DNA from: Legionella cherrii
GTDB lineage: Bacteria; Pseudomonadota; Gammaproteobacteria; Legionellales; Legionellaceae
Assembly (NCBI RefSeq): GCF_900635815.1
Contig: NZ_LR134173.1
Span: 3,318,001-3,382,000 of the forward strand
Length of the DNA stretch: 64,000 nt
Reading direction: 5' to 3'
The number at the start of each line of letters is the position of its first letter. Positions within the stretch are counted from its first letter, which is position 1. A program made the position numbers and the translations under genes. Shown here in pieces: positions 4,673 to 45,680 of this stretch. The notes beneath the pieces were generated by a model. That model saw only the letters and a list, made by a program, of their open reading frames with translations, had not been told where the DNA came from and did no database searches.

Positions 4673-5131
4673 ATGAACCTTTTACATTCGCGCATTTTCC
4701 CTTTTTTCTTTTTATTTTTTTTATTACCCTTTTCTGCAAAAGCTGCGACAGATAGTTCAATCAGCCTGGTTGGGGATCAAGGCTATGACCTTGTCTCCTA
4801 TCAACAAAAAAATGGGCCTGTACGAGGAAGTGGAAATCATGTCGTCATGTATCATGGTATTGCTTACATTTTTGCAACCCAGGAAAATAAAAAAGCATTT
4901 GCAGCAAATCCTGAAAAATATTTACCTGCCTATGGTGGTTATTGTGCTTATGGAGTTGCCTCGGGACATAAAGTAATCAGCGATCCTTTAGCATGGAAAA
5001 TTGTTGAGGGGAAACTCTATCTTAATCTGAATAAGCAAATTCAGGCTATTTGGGTAAAAGATATTCCTGGCAACATTAAAAAAGCAGATGAACAATGGTC
5101 TCAAATAAAAGATAAAGACGCTTCCATTTAA
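4673..5131 (+). CDS. Exported YHS-domain protein
   Basis: Small periplasmic protein of 152 aa. Residues 1 to about 25 form a strongly hydrophobic signal peptide ending in AKA. The rest is a YHS domain: GYDLVSY, then YHGIAYIFAT, then FAANPEKYLPAYGGYCAYG. YHS domains are thought to bind metal or assist metal enzymes, and the Cys in GGYCAYG is the conserved one. The exact role is unknown. Its own ribosome binding site (AAGGAG) precedes it and a clear terminator follows, so it is probably a single-gene unit. Confidence 0.8.
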   Translation: MNLLHSRIFPFFFLFFLLPFSAKAATDSSISLVGDQGYDLVSYQQKNGPVRGSGNHVVMYHGIAYIFATQENKKAFAANPEKYLPAYGGYCAYGVASGHKVISDPLAWKIVEGKLYLNLNKQIQAIWVKDIPGNIKKADEQWSQIKDKDASI

Positions 5132-5169
5132 ATCAGTAACAACTGTTTTTTTAGAATGAAATGATGAGA

Positions 5170-5196
5170 AAAGCACAGCCTTAGCTGTGCTTTTTT
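5170..5196 (+). terminator. Rho-independent terminator after YHS gene
   Basis: AAGCACAG, loop CCTTAG, CTGTGCTT, followed directly by a T run. It lies 40 nt after the YHS gene stop and before the chitinase gene. Confidence 0.85.
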
Positions 5197-5282
5197 ATTA
5201 CCAAAAAATTCTTGCATTAAATCTTAAAGCTCTTTATTGTTTAAACCCCAAATCACTAATTTTATGAAAATTAAGGGAATTT

Positions 5283-7616
5283 ATGAAAAAAATAGGACTA
5301 TTAGTTGGTTTCTTGTTTTTCTTAAATGATGGTTTTGCCAAAACGCCCATTATTGCCCCACAACCCACTTCTTGTATTACAGGCAGCTTCAGCTCAACTG
5401 GTACAAGTAGCTGGCAAACCGTTTCATTGAAAATAACCAACAATTGCAATCAAACTGTAGACTTTCAAAACTCGACCATAACTTTTTCTAATGGCAGTAA
5501 TTTGAATACCTCTTTTTGGGGAAATTTTTCGCCATTATCTTATCCAGTCAATACGTTGCAAATCACGTCACAACCTCAAAGCGGCACCTATTTATCCTCG
5601 CTCTCATTACAATTTCCCACCTATCAAGGAGCCAACAGTAAACTTCCCAAAGGAAGTTCTTTTACCATTATTTACGGGGAACCAACCGCAGATTATATAG
5701 CCAATAGCGTCTCTGTTTATTTAAATTCTCCAGTATCTACTGGCACTATCAATTTAATTAACGCTACAGCAAAACCTGCTAATGTAACACAAACTTATGC
5801 ACTGGTTAATTTAACTTTAAACGGTCAAACAGTGAGTGCACAGGTGCCTTGGTCAGGACAACAACAGATATCTGGCCTTGCTGCGGGAACTTATACCGTT
5901 TCGCCTACTAATATAACGGATAGTAATGGAGTCGTGTATCAAGGAGTAGCAAATCCTGCAAGCTTAACCGTTTCAGCAGGCACTAATGTTTCTTCTACAA
6001 TTAACTATGCTGCAATGCAAACAACAGGAAACATCAACATCAATTTAGCTGCATTGCCTTCTCAATTATCGGGTTATACAGGCAATCCAACCGTAACCTT
6101 AACCCGCATGGACACTCAAAGTTCAACCAATGCTCAAGTGAGTTGGAGCACAATTAACGTAATCAGCCAGTTATCCAACGGGGTCAGCTATGCATTCTCT
6201 ACTCCAGTAATTACCTATAATGGATACAACTGTACTCCGACCTTTACACCGACATCAGCTGTTGCTGCAGTGACTGCTCCCACAGTACAACTCAGTTATA
6301 ATTGCGTTCAAGTAGCCCAAGACAGTATTCCCGTTACCATAACAGGAGCACCTGCGGCTCTTTCCTCCATTAATGTAACCTTTACTCCGAGCGGCAATGG
6401 CACACCAGTTAATGAAACCATTTCATTAAGCAACGGAACTGGAACAGCTCATGTGAGCCTGACGGATGGAATGGTTTACACGGTAAGCGCAACATCAGTA
6501 AATGGTTATGCGGTAACTTATGCTCCCCAACCTTTAACTGCATCATCCTCTGCTACTGAAACCATTACTTATACTCAAAACACAACTACCGGAGGCAGAA
6601 TTATAGGTTACTTGCCTGGTTGGGAGACTCCACCATCTGCTACTGCTTTGGCAAATGCGGGTTATACTCACATCCTCGTAGCATTTGGAGTCTTTAGTAC
6701 CACCAATCCTGGCCAAATCACTTCTGCATTCGATACCGTCTCAGCAAGTTACATTCAGTCATTGCACAATGCGGGCATTAAAGTGTTACTGTCCTTAGGT
6801 GGAGCATCATCCAGTATTGCGAATACTACGGTAGATTTTCATCAAGTATTATCAGCAGCCTCTTCACCTGCAGCATTTGAACAAACTTTTATTAGTTCCT
6901 TAGAAAACCTACTCACTCAGTATAATTTTGATGGATTTGATTTTGATATTGAAAGTGGATTAAATGCGAGTGGAACTTTTAGCAATCCTACCGGTGATAT
7001 CGCTGTTCTAGCGAATATTATCAATACAATGCATGCGAATCATCCTAATTTGCTTCTTACTTTAGTACCACAAACTGCGAATATCGCCGCTACCTCAGGT
7101 TTTGATGCAACGTGGGGTAATTATGCTTCTTTGGTGATGCAAACCCATCAATCTTTAGCATGGGTCGGTATTCAAATGTATAATGCCGGCTGTACGTATG
7201 GCATTGACCTGATTTGTTATGATCCGAACAATACAAGCAGTCCAAATGCTTCAGTAGCTATGGCCACCGATTTACTTGAAAATTGGCCTGCGGTCACCAG
7301 TTCTGGACAGCAAACTGGGTTCCAACCTTACATTAGTTATCTAACCCCTTCTCAAGTGGTATTAGGCTATCCTGCACCTAATGCATCAGGACAAAGCGAT
7401 GGCTCACCTGCAGCAGTTATTGGTACAATCAAACGAGCCATACAATGTTTACGTACTGGAGTTGCCGGCGCATCCAGTTGTGATACCTACATTCCACCAC
7501 GGACTTATCCAGGATTTGGAGGGGTGTTTGACTGGGAAGTTATTCATGACGAAAGCAACAATTATCACTTTGCCACCAGTTTGGTAAACTGTGTAATTAA
7601 TGGGAATTGTAATTAA
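5283..7616 (+). CDS. chiA: Secreted multidomain chitinase, GH18 (ChiA-type)
   Basis: Predicted chitin hydrolase exported by Sec, and in Legionella the ChiA homologue is a type II secretion substrate. The signal peptide is cleaved after about Ala19. Residues 25-135 resemble a carbohydrate-binding module (two Cys, many Ser/Thr/Asn and aromatic residues). About 150-435 form three immunoglobulin/fibronectin-like repeats. The GH18 barrel starts near residue 439 (IIGYLPGW) and contains FDGFDFDIE, with the proton donor Glu557. The C-terminal region holds several Cys residues. Total length, 777 aa, is close to that of L. pneumophila ChiA. The start follows AAGGGAA. It stands alone, with a terminator upstream and a family A repeat downstream. 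Confidence 0.88.
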   Translation: MKKIGLLVGFLFFLNDGFAKTPIIAPQPTSCITGSFSSTGTSSWQTVSLKITNNCNQTVDFQNSTITFSNGSNLNTSFWGNFSPLSYPVNTLQITSQPQSGTYLSSLSLQFPTYQGANSKLPKGSSFTIIYGEPTADYIANSVSVYLNSPVSTGTINLINATAKPANVTQTYALVNLTLNGQTVSAQVPWSGQQQISGLAAGTYTVSPTNITDSNGVVYQGVANPASLTVSAGTNVSSTINYAAMQTTGNININLAALPSQLSGYTGNPTVTLTRMDTQSSTNAQVSWSTINVISQLSNGVSYAFSTPVITYNGYNCTPTFTPTSAVAAVTAPTVQLSYNCVQVAQDSIPVTITGAPAALSSINVTFTPSGNGTPVNETISLSNGTGTAHVSLTDGMVYTVSATSVNGYAVTYAPQPLTASSSATETITYTQNTTTGGRIIGYLPGWETPPSATALANAGYTHILVAFGVFSTTNPGQITSAFDTVSASYIQSLHNAGIKVLLSLGGASSSIANTTVDFHQVLSAASSPAAFEQTFISSLENLLTQYNFDGFDFDIESGLNASGTFSNPTGDIAVLANIINTMHANHPNLLLTLVPQTANIAATSGFDATWGNYASLVMQTHQSLAWVGIQMYNAGCTYGIDLICYDPNNTSSPNASVAMATDLLENWPAVTSSGQQTGFQPYISYLTPSQVVLGYPAPNASGQSDGSPAAVIGTIKRAIQCLRTGVAGASSCDTYIPPRTYPGFGGVFDWEVIHDESNNYHFATSLVNCVINGNCN

Positions 7617-7629
7617 ATTAAATGTAACA

Positions 7630-7723
7630 TCTCCCTTATAGTGAGATGGTGCCCGTAAGGGCGGATGAGGGTAACTGACTAAAACCCTCACCCCTACCCC
7701 TCTCCCATTCGTGGGAAAGGGGA
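7630..7723. repeat. Family A palindromic repeat, copy 2
   Basis: Same two modules as at 33-132 but in the opposite order. GTGCCCGTAAGGGCGGATGAGGG comes first in part, then CCCTCACCCC and the CCCCTCTCCC/GGGAAAGGGG hairpin followed by a T-rich run. It separates chiA from the hydrogenase locus and could act as a terminator for chiA. Confidence 0.75.
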
Positions 7724-7762
7724 TTTTTTTTATTTCGAAGTAGCAAAACTAGAGAATACACC

Positions 7763-8443
7763 ATGGAAAATACCGGATTATTTTTAATCGCAATGGCCTT
7801 TTTGCTAGGTATCCGCCATGGTTTTGATTTGGATCATCTGGCAACCATAGATTCCGTCGCACGAATAGTCAGTGGACGTCGAACTCTAGCAAAACTTGTA
7901 GGATTTTTATTTTCCCTCGGACATGGTTTAGTAGTCATTTTAATCAGCTTAATTATTGGCAATGGGGTTAAGCCAGTACTCGTTCCCCAATGGCTCGATG
8001 GGCTTGGCAATGGTATATCCATTACATTTTTATTGATTTTTGGATTACTCAATTTTTGGAATATTTTCCGAGATCCAGCCCAATCTCCTTTTCCAACCAG
8101 TTTCAAAAACTATTTCTCAAAAAAATTAATCCGCGGTCAGGCTAACCCTTTTATTATCGTATTGATTGGCGCCCTCTTTGCCCTGTCCTTTGATACAGTA
8201 AGCCAAGTGGTCTTATTTTCCCTTTCTGCTCGGGCGATGGCAGGATGGCTATTCTCAGGGATGCTTGGCCTCATTTTTATGTTTGGGATGATGGTTTCAG
8301 ACGGATTAAATGGATTACTTGTTTCAACTTTAATCCAACGTGCCGATTCAGTATCTCTTATATTTTCCCGGCTGGCCGGCTTTATGATTGCATCATTTAG
8401 TCTGATTATTGGTATGATTAATTTTATCAAAATGTATAATTAG
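7763..8443 (+). CDS. Nickel/cobalt transporter, NiCoT-like (HoxN/HupN/NixA family)
   Basis: Probable inner-membrane importer of Ni2+ for the hydrogenase. The first membrane segment contains RHGFDLDHLATID, a variant of the NiCoT signature HAxDADHI that binds the metal. About six hydrophobic segments can be seen, including a conserved-looking FALSFDTVSQ segment. At 226 aa it is shorter than typical NiCoT proteins (about 330-350 aa), so it belongs to a compact branch. It starts the hydrogenase gene run, 9 nt before hypA. The assignment rests on the signature and on this neighbourhood. Confidence 0.78.
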   Translation: MENTGLFLIAMAFLLGIRHGFDLDHLATIDSVARIVSGRRTLAKLVGFLFSLGHGLVVILISLIIGNGVKPVLVPQWLDGLGNGISITFLLIFGLLNFWNIFRDPAQSPFPTSFKNYFSKKLIRGQANPFIIVLIGALFALSFDTVSQVVLFSLSARAMAGWLFSGMLGLIFMFGMMVSDGLNGLLVSTLIQRADSVSLIFSRLAGFMIASFSLIIGMINFIKMYN

Positions 8444-8452
8444 AGTCGTTTG

Positions 8453-8794
8453 ATGCATGAATTATGGGTATGTAAAAGTATTCTCGAGATTATTAAGCAG
8501 AAAGCAGCTGCAACACAGTGTACTCGTGTAAAAAAAATCATTTTAGAGATTGGCCAGCTTGCAGCAATTGAGAAAGACGCCCTGACTTTTGGTTTCAAAG
8601 TGATTACAGAAGGAACCATCGCGGAGAATGCAGAACTTTACATCATCGATATTCCAGGTGAAGGACTTTGCGAATCGTGCCAAAACCGAAGCCCTTTACA
8701 GCAATATTACGATGCATGCCAGGTCTGTGGAGGTCATCAATTAAAGGTCATTCAAGGTGAAGAATTACAAATTAAATCAATGGTGGTTGAATAA
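8453..8794 (+). CDS. hypA: Hydrogenase nickel chaperone HypA
   Basis: Delivers Ni to the hydrogenase large-subunit precursor together with HypB. The protein starts MHELW; the N-terminal Met-His-Glu binds nickel, and this fixes the start at the ATG at 8453 rather than the TTG one codon earlier. The zinc site is formed by CESC (about residues 73-76) and CQVC (about 90-93). Length (113 aa) is normal. It is followed 2 nt later by hypB. Confidence 0.93.
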   Translation: MHELWVCKSILEIIKQKAAATQCTRVKKIILEIGQLAAIEKDALTFGFKVITEGTIAENAELYIIDIPGEGLCESCQNRSPLQQYYDACQVCGGHQLKVIQGEELQIKSMVVE

Positions 8795-8796
8795 AA

Positions 8797-9558
8797 ATGT
8801 GTGGAATATGCGGTTGTACTGAAGAACATAATGAAATGGAGCATCATGAACATCATCATGAGTCGATGCATCACAGCCATGATGAACATCTAATCCAGGT
8901 GGAGCAAAATATTTTAGCCAAGAACCAACAATTTGCTCGCGCCAATAAAAATTTTTTAACCGGTAAAACTATTTTGGCCTTGAATATCATGTCAAGCCCA
9001 GGTTCTGGTAAAACAACCCTTTTAGCAAAAACCATTCTGGATTTAAAAAATGAAGTGGAAATTGCCGTTGTGGTTGGCGATCAACAAACAAATCATGATG
9101 CAGAATTAATTAAAGCCAGTGGGGGTAATGCCTTACAAATCAATACAGGAAAAGTGTGTCATTTGGATGCGCATATGGTGGGGCATGCCTTAGAAGATCT
9201 CCCTTTAAAAGAAAATTCACTCTTGTTTATTGAAAATATAGGCAATCTTGTTTGTCCTGCTTTATTCGACTTAGGAGAACAATTTAAAGTGGTTATTCTT
9301 TCAGTGACCGAAGGGGACAATAAACCACTAAAATATCCCGATATGTTCCGTTGTGCGGACTTAATGCTCATCACCAAAATGGACCTACTGCCTTATGTGA
9401 ATTTTGATCTGGACCAATGTATTGAATACGCACGTCGAATTAAGCCCTCCATTGAGACACTGACCCTCTCAACGGTGAATGGCAATGGTTTAGAAGCTTG
9501 GTACGAATGGCTCAGGAAAAAACAAATGGACACCCGTGTGAATCAATGGACCGTTTAA
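8797..9558 (+). CDS. hypB: Hydrogenase nickel-insertion GTPase HypB
   Basis: GTP-dependent Ni insertion partner of HypA. The N-terminus MCGICGC is a CxxCGC-type high-affinity nickel site, followed by a His-rich stretch (residues 11-31, about ten His) for Ni storage. The P-loop SSPGSGKTTLL is at residues 66-76, and the specificity motif TKMDLL and switch residues are present. Length (253 aa) is normal. The 3' end overlaps hypF by 13 nt, indicating translational coupling. Confidence 0.95.
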   Translation: MCGICGCTEEHNEMEHHEHHHESMHHSHDEHLIQVEQNILAKNQQFARANKNFLTGKTILALNIMSSPGSGKTTLLAKTILDLKNEVEIAVVVGDQQTNHDAELIKASGGNALQINTGKVCHLDAHMVGHALEDLPLKENSLLFIENIGNLVCPALFDLGEQFKVVILSVTEGDNKPLKYPDMFRCADLMLITKMDLLPYVNFDLDQCIEYARRIKPSIETLTLSTVNGNGLEAWYEWLRKKQMDTRVNQWTV

Positions 9559-11768
9559 GAATAATCATTCAAGGACAAGTCCAAGGTGTTGGCTTTAGAC
9601 CTTGTGTGTACCGAATCGCCAAACATCTTGCGCTCACAGGTTGGATCCAAAATAATGCTGAGGGGGTATTGATTGAAGTACAAGGGGTTTTGGCCTATCA
9701 ATTTATTGCTCATTTACAAGAACATCTACCCCCGCTTGCCAAAGTATATCAAATTCAATCTGAAACGATTCCCTTAAAACACAATGAAAAAGTCTTTGAA
9801 ATTATTGAAAGTCAAAAAGGTAAAGTAAATACCCTTATTACCCCTGATGCGAGCATTTGCACCCAATGCTTAGACGAACTGTTTGATCCTCAAAGCCGCT
9901 ATTTCCGCTACCCTTTCTTGAATTGTACGCATTGCGGCCCCCGGTTCACAATCACCCGAAGTCTTCCCTATGATCGCCATCAAACCTCGATGGATTTGTT
10001 TCCTTTATGTCTGGATTGCCAAGCAGATTACAACGACCCTGAAAACCGACGCTACCATGCCCAACCGACAGCCTGTATGCATTGTGGTCCTCAACTTTCA
10101 TTACCCGTGGAGGAAATTGCCCAATCTATTACACAAGGCGAAATCATTGCGCTCAAAGGTTTGGGCGGATATCAACTCATTTGTGATGCGCGTAATGAAG
10201 AAGCGGTAGCCAAGTTGCGCATAAGAAAGAACCGAGACGAGAAACCTTTTGCCCTTATGGTCGCCAACAGCTTCAGTGCGGAACGGCTTGTCACAATGAA
10301 TCAGCAAGAACGTGATTTATTAGAGAGTATTGCGCGTCCCATTGTATTGCTCAAAAAAAATGATGTATTGAATACGTACAGTCCTGCAATTGCTCCAGGA
10401 TTAAATACCTTGGGTATTATGCTTCCATATACTCCATTACATTATTTACTGTTCAATGCTCTTGCTGGAAATAAAAACGGTTGTGCGTGGTTAAATGAGT
10501 ATCAAAATACCTTATTAGTAATCACCAGTGCCAACTTAGGCGGCGACCCCCTAATTATTGAAGACCATAGTGCCGAACAGCAACTCAATCACATCGCCGA
10601 TAAAATAATTTCCTATAACCGCCAAATTATCACTCGTGTCGATGATTCGGTCATTCGCGTAGTAAGTCATGGTCCTCAATTTATTCGCCGCTCTCGAGGT
10701 TTTGTACCAACTCCCATCCAGCTCTCGCATGAAATTCCACCCACTTTGGCAGTAGGCGGACATTTAAAAAATACCTTCTGTATTACTCGTGGTGATGAAG
10801 CATTTGTTTCTCAACATATTGGCAGTTTAAACAATAAAGCAACTATTGAGTTCTTTCATGAATCATTAAAGCATTTGCTGCGTTTTCTCGATCTAACCCC
10901 AGAACGAATTGCTCATGATTTGCACCCTGATTTTTACACCACCCATTTTGCCCAACATTATGGAATTCCTGCTTTTGCCATTCAACACCATCATGCCCAT
11001 TTAGCTTCAGTTATTGCGGAGCACGGGATTAAACAAAAGGCCTTAGGACTTGCGCTTGATGGGTATGGATACGGTATCCATGGTGAAGCTTGGGGGGGAG
11101 AACTTTTTCTATTAGAACATTCAACCTGTACTCGGTTAGGATCTTTTTTACCTCTTTTACAACCCGGTGGAGAAATTGCAGCACGGGAGCCCTGGCGAAT
11201 GGCAGCCAGCGTTTTGCATCATTTGGGCCGTAGCAATGAAATTAGCGAACGATTTTCAAATCATCCCCAAGCGCACATTATCCATCAACTGCTGAATAGA
11301 AGAATAAATAGCCCGAGCACAAGCAGTTGTGGTCGCTTGTTTGATGCAGTAAGTGCCTTATTGGGAATTCAATTGATTTCGCACTATGAAGGTCAGGCTG
11401 CAATGCGTTTAGAAAGCATGGTCACTCAAGTACAAATACTCCCCAATGGATGGCAAATAAAAGAGGGTTTTTTTGATATGATGCCTACCCTAAACGTATT
11501 AGCTAATCGATGTGAGCCGATAACTGGTGCGAATCTTTTTCATGGAACACTCATTGCTGGTCTTGCAGCATGGATTACGGGAATCTGTCGAGAAAGAAAA
11601 ATTGATGTGGTAATATTAAGCGGAGGTTGTTTTTTAAATCCAATATTAGCCGAAGGATTAATCACCACGTTAAGTGAATCAGATATCACCTCTTTTTTAC
11701 CACGTGCTCTTCCACCCAATGATGGAGGAATTTCCCTCGGACAAGCGTGGATTGCTGGGAATTTATAA
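9546..11768 (+). CDS. hypF: Carbamoyltransferase HypF
   Basis: Makes the carbamoyl group that becomes the CN ligands of the NiFe site. Domains in order: acylphosphatase (about 1-90, GQVQGVGFRPCVYRIA), two zinc fingers (CTQC, CTHCG, CLDC and CMHCG, about 105-185), a YrdC-like domain (about 195-380) and a Kae1-like carbamoyltransferase domain with HHHAH (about 480) and a C-terminal LSGGCF. Length is about 740 aa. The start at 9546 was chosen because the acylphosphatase fold begins there; an earlier in-frame start would lie inside hypB. All key motifs are intact. A family B repeat follows, separating it from hypC. Confidence 0.94.
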   Translation: MDRLRIIIQGQVQGVGFRPCVYRIAKHLALTGWIQNNAEGVLIEVQGVLAYQFIAHLQEHLPPLAKVYQIQSETIPLKHNEKVFEIIESQKGKVNTLITPDASICTQCLDELFDPQSRYFRYPFLNCTHCGPRFTITRSLPYDRHQTSMDLFPLCLDCQADYNDPENRRYHAQPTACMHCGPQLSLPVEEIAQSITQGEIIALKGLGGYQLICDARNEEAVAKLRIRKNRDEKPFALMVANSFSAERLVTMNQQERDLLESIARPIVLLKKNDVLNTYSPAIAPGLNTLGIMLPYTPLHYLLFNALAGNKNGCAWLNEYQNTLLVITSANLGGDPLIIEDHSAEQQLNHIADKIISYNRQIITRVDDSVIRVVSHGPQFIRRSRGFVPTPIQLSHEIPPTLAVGGHLKNTFCITRGDEAFVSQHIGSLNNKATIEFFHESLKHLLRFLDLTPERIAHDLHPDFYTTHFAQHYGIPAFAIQHHHAHLASVIAEHGIKQKALGLALDGYGYGIHGEAWGGELFLLEHSTCTRLGSFLPLLQPGGEIAAREPWRMAASVLHHLGRSNEISERFSNHPQAHIIHQLLNRRINSPSTSSCGRLFDAVSALLGIQLISHYEGQAAMRLESMVTQVQILPNGWQIKEGFFDMMPTLNVLANRCEPITGANLFHGTLIAGLAAWITGICRERKIDVVILSGGCFLNPILAEGLITTLSESDITSFLPRALPPNDGGISLGQAWIAGNL

Positions 11769-33538: not shown

Positions 33539-34396
33539 ATGACATTAGCAAAAAATTCAAATCCCTATTCAGCAGATACTGCATTTCAAGATGGCCGATT
33601 ACGCCAAGCGCAGCTAAAAATGCTTACTATGCTGGAAGTCGTAGACTCTATCTGCAGAAAACATGGTTTGGATTATTGGCTTGATGCGGGTACTCTTTTA
33701 GGTGCTGTCCGCCATCAAGGATTTATTCCCTGGGATGATGATGTGGATATTGCCATGCCCCGCTCCAGCTATGAACAATTTCTACGTGTTGCTCCATCAG
33801 AAATTCCAAACTGGATGTGGTTGCAAACAATCCATAGTGACCCAGGCTATTTTAATATGGCTACTCCCTTAAAAATCAGAGATCGTGCCAGTCGTTTTAT
33901 TGAAAAACACGAAAAAGGGAATGAGCCGTACGTTCAAGGTATCTTTATTGATGTATTTGTCTATGACAGGATGCCCGTAGACCCAAAACAACGAAAGCGT
34001 TACAAATTCTATGCTAAAAAGCTCTCCCGTTTATTATGCACTAAATACAGTAAAGTAAAAATAGGACACTATCCTACCTTCTATAAATTGATCGCCTCAT
34101 TTTTTCCTAAACCTCTACTTGAATGGGGTTTGCAAAAAATCATCCATCAAGCAAATGCCAGTCATAGCCCATATATAGGACGAGGATATAATTGCGTAGG
34201 CAAAAATTTAATTAAAAATGAAGAAATTTATCCTTTGCAACGCGTCTCTTTTGAAACCAAAGAATTTAATATCCCTCGTAACGCAGAAGCCTTCCTGATT
34301 CAACAATATGGTGATTATTTGCAGTTACCTCCAGAAGAACAACGAGTCATGAGACATTGTAAGGAACTGATTCCCCATCTGGAAGAAACAATATAG
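33539..34396 (+). CDS. LicD-family phosphotransferase
   Basis: Member of the LicD/Fukutin-related family, which moves phosphocholine or similar phospho-groups to sugars. DYWLDAGTLLGAVRHQGFIP followed by WDDDVDI (Asp66-68, Asp70) is the nucleotidyltransferase-like metal site. Length 285 aa is typical. Legionella has LicD-type genes for surface or host glycan modification; whether this one acts on LPS or a host target is not visible. A promoter-like site for the next gene lies right after its stop. Confidence 0.82.
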   Translation: MTLAKNSNPYSADTAFQDGRLRQAQLKMLTMLEVVDSICRKHGLDYWLDAGTLLGAVRHQGFIPWDDDVDIAMPRSSYEQFLRVAPSEIPNWMWLQTIHSDPGYFNMATPLKIRDRASRFIEKHEKGNEPYVQGIFIDVFVYDRMPVDPKQRKRYKFYAKKLSRLLCTKYSKVKIGHYPTFYKLIASFFPKPLLEWGLQKIIHQANASHSPYIGRGYNCVGKNLIKNEEIYPLQRVSFETKEFNIPRNAEAFLIQQYGDYLQLPPEEQRVMRHCKELIPHLEETI

Positions 34397-34413
34397 CCTC
34401 CTTCTCCTGAGGA

Positions 34414-34443
34414 TTGACAGATAATCATGCAATCGGATACAAT
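34414..34443 (+). promoter_or_regulatory. Strong sigma-70 promoter upstream of ABC-F gene
   Basis: -35 TTGACA (perfect, 34414-34419), 18-nt spacer, -10 TACAAT (34438-34443). Start of transcription is expected near 34450, leaving a leader of about 130 nt before the ABC-F start codon. Confidence 0.7.
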
Positions 34444-34489
34444 TGTACCCAATATCTAAAAAGCACATCTCTAAGAGGCTTAAACTATC

Positions 34490-34580
34490 ATGGACATTAT
34501 TTCTTAAGTACGCCCTTTATTTCGGGCGATGACGGAAGCAGTAAAAATCACTGCCCATTTAGAATACTTAAGAGAGTTAC
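34490..34580 (+). promoter_or_regulatory. Structured leader with 5-codon ORF, candidate attenuator of ABC-F
   Basis: A short ORF encodes MDIIS and ends with TAA at 34505-34507; AAGAGG upstream could be its ribosome site. An 11-bp stem pairs 34500-34510 with 34565-34575 (one GU). Inside it lie two hairpins: CGCCC/GGGCG (34511-34528) and GCAGT/ACTGC (34538-34554). The 3' arm overlaps AAGAGAG (34570-34576), the ribosome binding site of the ABC-F gene at 34581. A ribosome stalled on MDIIS would melt the 5' arm and free the site. This layout matches leader-controlled antibiotic resistance genes; the peptide itself is not a known one to me. Confidence 0.55.
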
Positions 34581-36011
34581 ATGATGCATAAGCCTATTCG
34601 ATTTCAAGATCTTAGTCTTTCTTTCCCCCACAAAACATGTTTTGTGGACTTCAGTGGCCAAGTTTCCAACGGCAGTCGAATTGCAATTATTGGACGCAAT
34701 GGCACTGGAAAATCAACCCTGCTCAAAATACTTGCAGGAGTACTTCAACCAACCGAGGGTGACATCCATTTTCCTCAAGCATTGAATAGAGGTTATGTCC
34801 CCCAAGTCATTGAAGAATATAACTCATTAAGTGGAGGACAACGTTTTCAAAAATTATTGACGCAGGCATTGGCTTCGGATCCAAATCTTTTAATGCTCGA
34901 TGAGCCTAGTAATCACCTGGATCGTAAAAATCGACATTCTTTAATGAGAATGCTTTCTGATTATCGAGGAACCTTAATTATGGTGACCCATGATATCGAA
35001 TTATTGCAATCCACTGTGGATACGATTTGGCATATTGATCAAGGTAAGGTCAATGTTTTTACTGGATGTTATGAGGATTACTTGCGAGAAATCACGATTC
35101 AGCGCCATGCGATTGAAGGTGAACTTGCGGAACTGATACGTCAGAAAAAGCAACTTCATGTCGACATGATGAAAGAACAAGTACGAGCCAAGAGCAGTAG
35201 AGCTCAAGGTGAAAAACACATTCAGCAGCGGAAGTGGCCAACCATTGTTTCACAGAGTAAAGCGAGGAATGCACAAGAGACTTCTGGACGTAGAAAAAGC
35301 GCAATCTGTCATAAGAAACAAGAGTTAAGCCAACGTTTATCAGAACTCTACTTGCCCGAAACGATTCAACCCAAATTTGCTGTTCCTGGGGTTGTAACAA
35401 GCCAGACCTTAGTAACAATCAGCGAAGGAACTGTTGGTTATGTGGAAAATAAGTCTATTTTGCGTGAGTTGAGCTTTTCAATAAAAGCACGAGATCGGAT
35501 TGCGATTTGTGGCGATAACGGTTCAGGTAAATCCACTTTACTCAGAGCCATTTTAGGTAGTCCGTCTGTAATAAAAACAGGAAATTGGACTGTCCCGCAA
35601 GCGTATGAGATTGGCTACCTTGATCAACATTATACGACGCTGCCAGCAGAGAAAACCGTATGGGAGGCGATAAGCTGTTGCTTAATCTATAAATCCTATA
35701 CCGAAATTAGGGAGCATCTAAATGATTTTTTATTTCGAAAAAATGAAGAAGTTAATGCCTTGGTTTCAACCTTATCTGGTGGAGAAAAGGCTAGACTCTC
35801 TTTGGCACAAATTGCGGCGATTACACCCAAAATGCTGATTTTGGATGAAATGACAAACAACTTGGATAGAGAAACACGTGCTCACGTAATTCAGGTACTC
35901 AAAGTTTATCCTGGGGCCATGATTGTTATTTCCCATGATGCTGATTTTTTGAATGCTATCCAAGTAACTGATCGGTATGAAATTAAGGATGGGCTATTAA
36001 GCGCCTTATAG
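34581..36011 (+). CDS. ABC-F ATPase, antibiotic-resistance-like
   Basis: Soluble protein with two ATPase domains and no membrane segment, the ABC-F pattern of ribosome-binding proteins. Domain 1: Walker A GRNGTGKST (38-46), signature LSGGQ, Walker B LMLDEPSNHLD. Domain 2: Walker A GDNGSGKST (311-319), LSGGEKARLSLAQ, LILDEMTNNLD. The linker (about 185-270) is basic and helical. At 476 aa, with a short stretch between Walker A and signature in domain 1, it resembles Vga/Lsa/Msr-type target-protection proteins more than the EttA housekeeping group. The upstream leader and the ABC exporter gene 25 nt downstream fit a drug-response unit. Drug specificity is unknown. Confidence 0.85.
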   Translation: MMHKPIRFQDLSLSFPHKTCFVDFSGQVSNGSRIAIIGRNGTGKSTLLKILAGVLQPTEGDIHFPQALNRGYVPQVIEEYNSLSGGQRFQKLLTQALASDPNLLMLDEPSNHLDRKNRHSLMRMLSDYRGTLIMVTHDIELLQSTVDTIWHIDQGKVNVFTGCYEDYLREITIQRHAIEGELAELIRQKKQLHVDMMKEQVRAKSSRAQGEKHIQQRKWPTIVSQSKARNAQETSGRRKSAICHKKQELSQRLSELYLPETIQPKFAVPGVVTSQTLVTISEGTVGYVENKSILRELSFSIKARDRIAICGDNGSGKSTLLRAILGSPSVIKTGNWTVPQAYEIGYLDQHYTTLPAEKTVWEAISCCLIYKSYTEIREHLNDFLFRKNEEVNALVSTLSGGEKARLSLAQIAAITPKMLILDEMTNNLDRETRAHVIQVLKVYPGAMIVISHDADFLNAIQVTDRYEIKDGLLSAL

Positions 36012-36036
36012 TTGTACCCAAAACTGAGTAAAGATT

Positions 36037-37803
36037 ATGAATAAAAAAAATAGTTCGCTAAACAATTTTTTCCTGAATCTGATAAAACCATACAGTTGGT
36101 ATGTTATTGGATTGTTGCTCACTGCTGCTTATTGGGGGATTAATAATGCCCTTTCTCCTTATGTGTTAAAACTCATTATTGATAAGGTTGCAGCATTTTC
36201 GGGCAATAAATCAGCCCTATTTGATGCAATAAAACCCTATATCATCGTATACATTACGTTGTGGGTGTTAATTGCTATGGATATGCGTTTTTCAGATTGG
36301 CTCCGGTTGAAGTTATTTCCCTACTTACGATATGACCTGGTTAATAACATGTTTGCCTATTTGAATCAGCATTCACATCGTTATTTCCAAAATAACTTTG
36401 CAGGCAGTTTATCCAATAAAATCTCTGATATGACCGCGGGCACCATCTCCATTTTTACAACAATCGATGATGCTGCCGCGCAAATTGTCGGTATTATTAT
36501 TGCGATTATCAGCATGCTGCTTGTGCAGCCGATATTTGCTTTGATTTTATTTGTTTGGGCCATTACTTTTTTGGGAGTCGCAATCGTTTATTTCAAGCCG
36601 GTGCAAGATCTTTCTAATATTTTTGCGACCAGTAAAACCACTTTAGTTGGAAAAATTGTTGATAGCATAAGCAATATCACGAACCTGCGCTTGTTTTCCA
36701 GAGCAGACTTTGAGAATCAAGTGATTCGAAATGCAACCCAGGATACTACAGATAAGGATCAGACCATGCAATGGACTATCTTGAAAATGCGTATCTATTG
36801 GGATGTGAGTATTATCGTTTTGATTGCTGCTAATTTATCTATGCTGGTCGTAATGTACAGTAAGGGTCAAGTATCAATAGGTGATTTTAGTTTCGTTATC
36901 TCATTGTCACTCAGTATTTTCTATAATTTATGGTACCTGGCGAGCCAATTCGTACATTTTGCTGAAGAACTGGGAAAGTGCAGACAAGCCCTAACCTTGA
37001 TTTCAGAACCCCATGAGATCACGGATCAACCCGATGCTCAGCCACTTACAGTCTCTCAAGGTCGTATTGAATTTCAAAACGTGAGCTTTCACTATGATGA
37101 AGGAGCCCACCTTTTTAAAAATAAATCCGTTGTGATTGAACCCGGACAAAAAATTGGTCTGGTAGGTTTATCTGGCTCTGGAAAAAGTACTTTTGTCAAT
37201 TTGATTCTTCGCCTGTTTGATGTGGAGTCAGGTAAGATTTTGATTGATGGACAAAATATTCGCGAGGTAACTCAAGAATCACTACGAGAAAATATTGCAA
37301 TGATTCCTCAGGATGTAACCTTATTTCATCGCACTTTAATCGAAAACATTCGTTATGGCCGTATTGATGCAACAGATGCAGAAGTAGTTGCTGCATCAAA
37401 GAAAGCACATTGCCATGAATTCATTTCCAAACTTCCTGAGCAATATGATGCGTTAGTTGGTGAGCGTGGAATTAAATTATCGGGTGGACAACGACAAAGA
37501 ATTGCCATCGCACGAGCTATGTTGAAAAATGCACCGATTCTAATCCTAGATGAAGCAACCTCAGCCCTGGATTCGTTGACTGAAAAATTGATTCAGGATG
37601 GCTTACATGTGTTAATGCAAAACAGAACAACCATTGTAATTGCGCACCGACTCTCCACCTTATCTGAAATGGATCGCATCTTGGTTTTTGAAAAAGGCCG
37701 TATCATTGAAGATGGTTCTCACGAGGAACTGCTCAAAATACCGAGTCATTACAGTCGTATGTGGAAAATGCAAGCCGGGGGATTTTTACCTGATGCGTTG
37801 TAA
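36037..37803 (+). CDS. ABC exporter, fused membrane and ATPase domains
   Basis: Half-transporter of 588 aa, working as a dimer in the inner membrane. About 320 residues hold six membrane segments. The ATPase domain has Walker A LSGSGKST, Q-loop PQDVTLF, signature KLSGGQRQRIAIAR, Walker B LILDEATSALD and the His switch IAHRL. Similar to MsbA/multidrug exporters. It follows the ABC-F gene by 25 nt and is probably cotranscribed, so a shared substrate such as an antibiotic is likely but unproven. Confidence 0.88.
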   Translation: MNKKNSSLNNFFLNLIKPYSWYVIGLLLTAAYWGINNALSPYVLKLIIDKVAAFSGNKSALFDAIKPYIIVYITLWVLIAMDMRFSDWLRLKLFPYLRYDLVNNMFAYLNQHSHRYFQNNFAGSLSNKISDMTAGTISIFTTIDDAAAQIVGIIIAIISMLLVQPIFALILFVWAITFLGVAIVYFKPVQDLSNIFATSKTTLVGKIVDSISNITNLRLFSRADFENQVIRNATQDTTDKDQTMQWTILKMRIYWDVSIIVLIAANLSMLVVMYSKGQVSIGDFSFVISLSLSIFYNLWYLASQFVHFAEELGKCRQALTLISEPHEITDQPDAQPLTVSQGRIEFQNVSFHYDEGAHLFKNKSVVIEPGQKIGLVGLSGSGKSTFVNLILRLFDVESGKILIDGQNIREVTQESLRENIAMIPQDVTLFHRTLIENIRYGRIDATDAEVVAASKKAHCHEFISKLPEQYDALVGERGIKLSGGQRQRIAIARAMLKNAPILILDEATSALDSLTEKLIQDGLHVLMQNRTTIVIAHRLSTLSEMDRILVFEKGRIIEDGSHEELLKIPSHYSRMWKMQAGGFLPDAL

Positions 37804-37846
37804 CGATCATTAGTGCGGCGAAAATTGGGATTTTTTGTAACTATAC

Positions 37847-37926
37847 CCTCACCCTATCCCTCTCCCCAAAGGGGCGAGGGATAAAAAACAGTCCATAAAA
37901 AAACCTCTCGCGCTTCAGGAGAGGGT
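37847..37926. repeat. Family A-like palindromic repeat, decayed
   Basis: ACCCTCACCCTATCCCTCTC and GGGGCGAGGG form one hairpin, and CCTCTC with GAGAGG another. It resembles the CCCCTCTCCC module of family A but lacks the full first module. It lies after the ABC exporter gene and may terminate it. Confidence 0.55.
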
Positions 37927-38032
37927 AAGAGTGTTACAATAGCTTTTTCCTTAGATCAGATACTTTTTCACCCTGAGATATACACAAACCGATTACGCTA
38001 TGCTCATCAGAACCACTGAAACAATGAAACAA

Positions 38033-43321: not shown

Positions 43322-43409
43322 GGAGAGATGGCCGAGCGGTCGAAGGCGCACGCCTGGAAAGTGTGTATACGGCAACGTATCGAGGGTTCGAATCCCTCTC
43401 TCTCCGCCA
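43322..43409 (+). tRNA. tRNA-Ser (GGA)
   Basis: 88 nt including an encoded CCA. Acceptor GGAGAGA/TCTCTCC with discriminator G, D arm GCCGAGCGGT, anticodon stem CACGC/GTGTG with loop CTGGAAA (anticodon GGA, reads UCC/UCU), a long variable arm TATACGGCAACGTATC as in class II tRNAs, and T arm GAGGG TTCGAAT CCCTC. A promoter-like TATAAG with a GC-rich discriminator precedes it at 43304. Confidence 0.96.
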
Positions 43410-45360: not shown

Positions 45361-45518
45361 AGATTGGGTAGCCTGGGTGCAGCGCAGCGAAAATCCAGGC
45401 TAAATTTTCTTCATTAATTCAACACATTAACAAATACCTGTTCAATTTTAACGAAATCTTTGCAAAAAACCAGCAAAATCAAGTGGCAATAGAACTTATA
45501 TTGGCCTATCATAGAATC

Positions 45519-45667
45519 ATAGACAGTACACATTGTTCAGCCAACATTATTACTTTGGGAGCCAGAGTGAGAGTGTGGTGTGCAAGCTTAGCATGTACTA
45601 AGAAGCCTGAAACACTCCAGAGGAGTCCACCTTGGTAAAAAGGACTGTACTCAATCTTACTGTCTAT
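45519..45667 (+). ncRNA. ssrS: Probable 6S RNA
   Basis: A 149-nt transcript closed by a 10-bp stem (ATAGACAGTA with TACTGTCTAT). The apical hairpin CTTAG-CATGTA-CTAAG followed by AAGCCTGAAAC matches, position for position, E. coli 6S CTCGG-loop-CCGAG followed by AAGCCTTAAAAC. CACCTTGG further down also has a counterpart. The unpaired middle fits the open-promoter mimic that binds sigma-70 polymerase. A TAGAAT -10 box (45512-45517) and a strong terminator (45681) frame it. No ygfA-like gene follows. Confidence 0.7.
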
Positions 45668-45680
45668 CCCAAATTTCATA

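What the first reader, a model, noticed from the sequence alone, without database searches (positions are those of the whole stretch)
34414..34581. Candidate ribosome-stalling leader controlling an ABC-F resistance-like gene
A perfect -35 and good -10 give a leader of about 130 nt. It contains a 5-codon ORF (MDIIS) whose stop lies in the 5' arm of an 11-bp stem. The 3' arm of that stem covers the ribosome binding site of the ABC-F gene. Two internal hairpins make a three-way junction. Leader-peptide control is established for several ABC-F and Erm-type resistance genes in Gram-positives; a Legionella example would be new to me. The downstream ABC exporter would be controlled with it.
Basis: partly seen in the sequence, partly recalled or inferred. 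Interest (0 to 1): 0.72.

Follow-up and report, generated by a model that had tools for sequence, protein, structure and literature searches.

The report
Tiny-ORF RNA switch before ABC-F operon
In Legionella and some other Gram-negative bacteria, a five- or six-codon mini-gene folds against the start site of a resistance-like gene, so a ribosome stuck on the mini-gene, for instance by an antibiotic, would be expected to switch that gene on.

Summary
Window 34414-34595 holds a strong promoter, a 5-codon ORF (MDIIS) with its own Shine-Dalgarno (SD) sequence, and an 11-bp stem pairing its last codons and stop with the SD of the ABC-F gene. An outer helix pairs the mini-ORF's SD and start codon with the start of the ABC-F gene. 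Of 54 distinct upstream regions of ABC-F relatives, 53 carry such a mini-ORF; the stem keeps pairing through compensatory changes. A covariance model found the element in 72 of 143 genomes of the order (104 places), and only the window in 398 genomes sampled across the phylum. Of the 104 places, 83 precede ABC-F (one cut by a contig end), 3 a shortened ABC-F, 17 an ABC exporter after loss of ABC-F, 1 nothing recognisable. In 11 of the 17 the exporter is read from the leader's own start codon. No Rfam family matches; no terminator was found. Best reading: a uORF-controlled translational attenuator, like those of Gram-positive ABC-F resistance genes and E. coli toiL, but a separate, portable proteobacterial family. 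Antibiotic stalling is untested; bench tests with Legionella genes are referred.

The parts
34414..34443 (+). sigma-70-like promoter TTGACA-18-TACAAT
   Evidence: Consensus scan 11 of 12; in relatives the best promoter-like pair before the uORF scores 8-12 of 12 (best match without a control)
34475..34478 (+). SD (GAGG) of the mini-ORF
   Evidence: Sequence; one of six purine-rich motifs tried precedes the uORF in 68 of 71 leaders
34490..34507 (+). mini-ORF MDIIS-stop (uORF)
   Evidence: 5 codons in 57 and 6 in 14 of 71 leaders, UAA in 70 of 71; synonymous changes in codons 2-4 exceed expectation
34500..34510 (+). P1 5' arm: last codons and stop of the uORF
   Evidence: compensatory changes at 7 of 11 pairs
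34565..34575 (+). P1 3' arm, covering the SD of the ABC-F gene
34476..34482 (+). P0b 5' arm: uORF SD region, pairs with 34589-34595
   Evidence: outer helix: cognate pairing stronger than non-cognate
34589..34595 (+). P0b 3' arm: within the first codons of the ABC-F gene
34486..34492 (+). P0a 5' arm: uORF start codon region, pairs with 34580-34586
34580..34586 (+). P0a 3' arm: ABC-F start codon region
34511..34528 (+). internal hairpin P2 (CGCCC/GGGCG)
   Evidence: its four counted pairs form in 81.4% of cells over 52 leaders
34534..34556 (+). internal hairpin P3, variable in relatives
   Evidence: alignment
34553..34556 (+). GCCC, possible alternative partner of the P2 GGGC
   Evidence: Such a partner in 48 of the 66 leaders in which the script found P2, 15.2 expected from base shuffles
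34570..34576 (+). SD (AAGAGAG) of the ABC-F gene
   Evidence: Sequence; predicted unpaired fraction of the SD region 0.04 in the free RNA
34581..36011 (+). ABC-F gene, 476 aa, VgaL/VmlR-like
36037..37803 (+). ABC exporter gene, 588 aa, 25 nt after ABC-F
   Evidence: no promoter-like or terminator-like site between the two genes

Best explanation
This is a cis-acting translational attenuator. In free mRNA a long hairpin pairs the uORF's last codons and stop (5' arm) with the SD of the main gene (3' arm), so the main gene is off. A ribosome that pauses anywhere on the 5-6 codon uORF covers the 5' arm and frees the main SD. Because the uORF is so short, a block at initiation, early elongation or termination would all be sensed; drugs that stop ribosomes at or just after the start codon (the pleuromutilin, lincosamide and streptogramin A group) are the likeliest inducers. 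Shown here: anatomy, conservation, covariation, portability. Inferred: stalling, induction, drug class.
For: Fold z -3.9. 53 of 54 distinct upstream regions of ABC-F relatives have the uORF. P1 cells 84.9% paired; whole-structure covariation score 0.215 against 0.126 in shuffles (0 of 500) and at most 0.101 in slid controls. Cognate P1 pairing -10.2 against -6.2 +/- 0.6 kcal/mol for non-cognate (0 of 2000), outer helix -9.0 against -7.1 +/- 0.6 (1 of 2000). uORF codons 2-4: 25 of 71 changes synonymous, fraction 0.217 expected, p 0.006. A modelled ribosome on the uORF raises the median unpaired fraction of the main SD from 0.11 to 0.48; rise over 0.15 in 57 of 71, against 0 of 71 and 0 of 46 with footprints placed elsewhere. 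The leader is kept on the exporter in 17 places after ABC-F loss. The ABC-F model is closest to VgaL, VmlR2 and VgaA; short uORFs control or precede such genes (PMC10201436, passages).
Against: No expression, toeprint or drug data. Part of the uORF's conservation could come from its pairing with the main SD. For single leaders the cognate test can fail: in G085 51 of 69 non-cognate P1 arms pair better than its own, in L041 22 of 68 and in G020d 24 of 70; the outer helix is weak in L046, L047, L027, L058 and G020d. Two of five measures did not clearly beat the shuffles. In 14 of 71 leaders the modelled stall raises SD exposure by 0.15 or less. There are 31 kinds of uORF peptide among 71 leaders, so no single arrest motif is visible. 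Two leaders have UAG instead of UAA (L091, L164) and one a GTG start (L193). Some genomes keep the leader beside a shortened ABC-F or no gene (L088, L128, L091, L131), so presence alone does not prove function.
Confidence: 0.77

Rival explanations
1. The uORF responds to the general rate or stage of translation (slow termination, starvation, ribosome shortage) and not to antibiotics; the ABC-F and exporter serve a physiological role.
For: UAA in 70 of 71 leaders; ABC-F proteins in general act on ribosomes (recalled, and abstracts listed); no drug data. All 25 exporter families shown score below their curated cut-offs.
Against: The nearest solved relatives are antibiotic-resistance ABC-Fs. Co-oriented neighbours in some relatives are drug-modifying or efflux types: AadA-like nucleotidyltransferase, APH, aminoglycoside adenylyltransferase, MFS, TipAS regulator.
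Confidence: 0.15
2. A plain SD-sequestering hairpin (thermosensor, ligand-binding RNA or constitutive damper) in which the uORF is not translated.
For: Stem stability and conservation; the last codons of the uORF are constrained by pairing.
Against: Reading frame, 5-6 codon length, own SD, and synonymous variation at codon 3, which is unpaired in the window fold; no Rfam match; highly variable middle part, unlike a ligand pocket.
Confidence: 0.07
3. Transcriptional attenuation as in several Gram-positive ABC-F leaders.
For: Known for msrD, vmlR and cplR (PMC10314930, PMC9226507, PMC10201436, passages read).
Against: Terminator-like sites in 34300-38000: 0 found, 2.8 expected in shuffles. Only the window was scanned. 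Rho-dependent termination downstream is not excluded.
Confidence: 0.05

Closest known systems
uORF leaders of Gram-positive ABC-F resistance genes (cplR MR[I/M], vmlR MIN, vmlR2 MK[L/Q], lsaA MAGN; lmo0919/vgaL)
   Same: Very short uORF before an ABC-F gene; for cplR and vmlR a hidden main SD in the uninduced RNA (PMC10201436 and PMC9226507, passages read)
   Different: cplR and vmlR combine it with an intrinsic terminator; none was found here. Here the uORF's own last codons and stop are the anti-SD, in Proteobacteria, and the leader also occurs before exporters.
msrD leader (msrDL, MYLIFM)
   Same: Short uORF ending in UAA before an ABC-F gene (PMC10314930, passages read)
   Different: msrDL acts through an intrinsic terminator and senses macrolides through the peptide; I saw no such peptide motif here. 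msrD itself is reported there from some Gram-negatives.
E. coli toiL-topAI
   Same: One hairpin pairs the uORF itself with the RBS of the next gene; stalls along the uORF are proposed to open it; translational, Gram-negative (PMC12121999, abstract and part 1 of 2 of the discussion read)
   Different: toiL controls a toxin-antitoxin operon and Rho acts downstream; here ABC-F and exporter genes. I did not compare the sequences.
VgaL / VmlR2 / VgaA ABC-F proteins
   Different: About 26% identity; below the curated NCBIfam cut-offs; resistance not tested.

Membership tests
uORF-dependent translational attenuator | short ORF with its own SD, conserved as an ORF | tested here: met
   5-6 codons, SD-like motif in 68 of 71, synonymous excess
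uORF-dependent translational attenuator | main SD sequestered by a conserved, covarying stem that overlaps the uORF | tested here: met
uORF-dependent translational attenuator | ribosome stalling on the uORF induces the main gene | not testable with these tools
   Only a folding model with a blocked footprint was run
Gram-positive ABC-F transcription attenuator | intrinsic terminator in the leader | tested here: not met
   0 terminator-like sites in 34300-38000 of the window
NCBIfam NF000355 ribosomal protection-like ABC-F | score above the curated cut-off | tested here: not met
   356.5 bits, cut-off 380
antibiotic-resistance (ARE) ABC-F, VgaL/VmlR type | two ABC domains joined by a long helical hairpin | tested here: met
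   AlphaFold2 model, helices 164-216 and 226-254, tip (residues 211-230) pLDDT 54-58; best chains VgaL, VmlR2, VgaA. Housekeeping ABC-Fs share this layout, so it does not single out resistance factors.
antibiotic-resistance (ARE) ABC-F, VgaL/VmlR type | confers resistance by acting on the ribosome | not testable with these tools
   No phenotype data
any Rfam 15 family | covariance-model match | tested here: not met
   No match over the leader at gathering threshold or at E up to 1

The most novel reading that the evidence does not exclude
A new, portable family of RNA switches in Gram-negative bacteria: a 5-6 codon uORF whose own codons are the anti-SD of the next gene, with both start sites locked in one hairpin so that each mRNA takes a single decision while it is made. 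It senses ribosome-targeting drugs and is handed from ABC-F genes to ABC exporters, which take over the ABC-F start codon, and it heads multi-gene resistance-like operons on conjugative plasmids.
Probability: 0.45. Interest if true: 0.76.

Novelty: new variant of a known kind. Interest (0 to 1): 0.62.

Why it matters
The leader-peptide control of ABC-F genes that I found in print is from Gram-positives, or from genes such as msrD that also occur in some Gram-negatives (PMC10314930, passages). If this element works as inferred, a whole group of Gram-negative ABC-F and exporter genes, some on conjugative plasmids, is silent until ribosomes stall, so standard growth would hide it. The repeated loss of ABC-F with the leader kept on the exporter is a natural test that the RNA, and not the protein, carries the sensing. 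The element can serve as a search model for inducible resistance-like operons in Proteobacteria.

Tried and rejected
RNAalifold on the MAFFT alignment recovered only 6 of the P1 pairs, because the middle part cannot be aligned; helices were then counted as named and tested by cognate against non-cognate pairing. In one search two measures did not beat the shuffles clearly: pairs with a change on both sides 19 against 16.1 (40 of 500 as high), further pair types 46 against 46.6 (337 of 500). A known arrest motif in the peptides was looked for by eye and not seen. An intrinsic terminator was sought and not found. Plasmids were searched in PLSDB (E up to 1e-60): 8 records, 5 Legionella and 3 Burkholderia glumae; three regions were read (L147, L148, L149), and the Burkholderia one (L147) shows no such leader.

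Rows left out: one search used 71 leaders, 53 from the ABC-F search and 18 of the 23 places; the five left out are two decayed ones (L131, L135) and three identical to leaders already in the set. A1 has 52 of the 53 uORF-bearing upstream regions (L091 left out); the 54th region, L044, has no leader. L056 was dropped because its 5' end is missing. In one search, 14 of the 44 places had a leader start identical to one of the 71. Genome searches with R1 over more than 40 genomes use stricter filters that lose weak matches, so the hit counts are lower bounds. uORFs were picked partly by eye, and the script kept only 5-6 codon candidates.

Literature: search listings; parts of four papers read. No report of this leader was seen in those searches; most subscription papers are not covered.

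Full report
WHAT IS THERE. The window lies in a Legionella-like genome: the closest named relatives of the ABC-F protein are Legionella sp. PATHC038 (96%), L. steelei and L. steigerwaltii (89%). The leader runs from a promoter (34414-34443) to the ABC-F start at 34581. It holds the uORF MDIIS-stop (34490-34507), the 11-bp stem P1 (34500-34510 with 34565-34575), the outer helices P0a and P0b that pair the uORF start codon and SD with the start of the ABC-F gene, and two internal hairpins. The fold is better than all 200 shuffles (z -3.9). The element occurs once in its genome.

CONSERVATION. Relatives of the ABC-F protein were collected by protein search. Of 54 distinct upstream regions, 53 contain a 5-6 codon uORF at a similar place; L044 does not. 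Of the 36 genomes of the genus (own included), the 27 with a close ABC-F relative (best E below 1e-100) all have a model hit, and the 9 without have none. On 52 aligned leaders (A1), P1 forms standard pairs in 84.9% of cells, with double changes at 7 of 11 pairs; the whole-structure covariation score is 0.215, against 0.126 in column shuffles (0 of 500 as high) and 0.058-0.101 in slid controls. Two other measures of the same call were not clearly above shuffles (see Tried and rejected). Clear examples: UCUUAAGUA with UACUUAAGA (MDIIS group), UCUCAAUAA with UUAUUGAGA (MRIISQ group), UCUCGCGU with ACGCGAGA (Chromobacterium). With 71 leaders in 15 clusters, cognate P1 arms pair at -10.2 kcal/mol, non-cognate arms at -6.2 +/- 0.6 (0 of 2000 derangements as low); for the outer helix -9.0 against -7.1 +/- 0.6 (1 of 2000). 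Single leaders can fail this test (G085 for P1), and the outer helix is weak in several lineages.

THE uORF. Among the 71 leaders 57 uORFs have five codons and 14 six; 70 end in UAA, one in UAG. Residue 2 is D, E, K, N or R in 69, residue 3 is I in 56, residue 5 is S or A in 63. Between nearest neighbours 25 of 71 base changes in codons 2-4 are synonymous against a fraction of 0.217 expected (p 0.006; neighbours are not fully independent). An SD-like motif from the list tried precedes 68 of 71.

DISTRIBUTION. Covariance model R1 hit 34 of 45 genomes of the genus in 60 places, 9 of 369 sampled genomes of the class, 1 of 398 sampled genomes of the phylum, the window's own, and 72 of 143 genomes of the order, 15 of 33 genera, all in the window's family, in 104 places. 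Seven of the nine class hits lie outside the family; six precede a full-length ABC-F frame and one (L094) an ABC-F frame of only 105 aa; uORFs there include MKNIA, MNTIA and MDTIS. Chromobacterium (Betaproteobacteria) came in by protein search. The 44 places outside the genus were fetched; 14 had a leader start identical to one of the 71, 30 were new. All 44 show a 5-6 codon uORF, one with GTG start (L193). The model contains the uORF sequence, so it favours such hits.

THE LEADER MOVES TO THE EXPORTER. Downstream of the 104 places: 82 an ABC-F frame of at least 440 aa, 1 an ABC-F gene cut by the contig end (L179), 3 a shortened ABC-F (L088 385 aa, L128 248 aa, L091 89 aa), 17 an ABC exporter with ABC-F lost or reduced to a remnant, 1 nothing recognisable (L131). 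In 11 of the 17 the exporter is read in frame from the leader's start codon, in several with the first residues of ABC-F (for example MNHKPIQFKDLSL) still attached (L130, L134, L139, L166, L168, L180, L183, L184, L185, L187, L188); in 5 a short remnant ORF precedes it (L132, L133, L142, L145, L165); in L135 the leader is decayed. On a tree of 30 exporters that includes 8 of the 17, the ABC-F-less state needs 5 changes, at least 4 forced by well supported branches. So the leader is retained without ABC-F repeatedly, which argues that it controls the exporter too.

CONTEXT. In the window the exporter starts 25 nt after ABC-F with no promoter-like site between. Many ABC-F relatives have no exporter next to them in the DNA read. 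On an L. longbeachae plasmid typed conjugative the order is leader, ABC-F, exporter, AadA-like nucleotidyltransferase, GrpB/GNAT, GNAT. In other relatives MFS transporters, aminoglycoside-kinase and adenylyltransferase families, a GNAT or a TipAS regulator follow. This suits drug resistance but does not show it; the NCBIfam scores are far below curated cut-offs.

MECHANISM. In a folding model the main SD region has a median unpaired fraction of 0.11 in the free RNA and 0.48 with a 31-nt ribosome footprint at the last sense codon; a rise over 0.15 is seen in 57 of 71, against 0 of 71 with the footprint upstream and 0 of 46 with it in the middle. With the ribosome at the start codon the median is 0.46. 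A ribosome at the last codon would also cover the first GCCC of P2; its partner GGGC has a second possible partner, in most cases shortly before the P1 3' arm, in 48 of 66 leaders (15.2 expected from base shuffles; per cluster 7.8 of 13 against 2.4), which may help to hold the open state. Stalling and induction are inferred. PMC10201436 (passages) says that the short uORFs of Gram-positive ABC-F genes are likely stalled by pleuromutilin, lincosamide, streptogramin A and nucleoside drugs, which act after initiation; PMC12121999 (discussion part 1) argues that pairing along a uORF lets one leader sense several drug classes.

VERDICT. A real, conserved RNA element absent from Rfam 15; a new variant of a known kind of control. 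What is missing is a direct test of stalling and induction.

Noticed in passing
L148 (L. longbeachae plasmid) 5001-11413; plasmid hits: Legionella plasmids (the two read, L148 and L149, are typed conjugative) carry leader, ABC-F and exporter, followed in L148 by an AadA-like nucleotidyltransferase and GNAT genes in one direction. The L148 leader recurs unchanged in 7 genomes of the genus (L082-L087 and L110), which suggests recent spread.
   Followed up: partly
window 34420-34437 and relatives L003, L032, L034, L059, L007: The spacer between -35 and -10 is nearly identical in the closest relatives while sequence further upstream has diverged; it could hold a regulator site.
   Followed up: no
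L043:4506-5267 and L045:2297-3058: A MerR-type gene lies right after ABC-F; the L043 protein carries a TipAS antibiotic-recognition domain, the L045 one looks alike by its first residues.
   Followed up: partly
L147:2492-3934 (Burkholderia glumae plasmid): A related ABC-F gene (46%) without this leader sits among methyltransferase, hydrolase, MATE and oxidoreductase genes, perhaps a biosynthetic cluster with self-protection.
   Followed up: no
L088, L091, L128, L131, L135, L094: Leaders kept beside a shortened ABC-F or beside no recognisable gene, or (L135) themselves decayed: possible stages of loss.
   Followed up: partly
L188 leader: A uORF with a changed reading end (MKITLK) that stops at a UAA just downstream, so it stays six codons long with its stop near the stem.
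   Followed up: no
window 33539-34396: A LicD-family gene lies directly upstream here; a LicD relative was also found upstream in many of the closest relatives.
   Followed up: no
window 43322-43406 and 45518-45669: A tRNA gene and a 6S RNA gene (Rfam).
   Followed up: no
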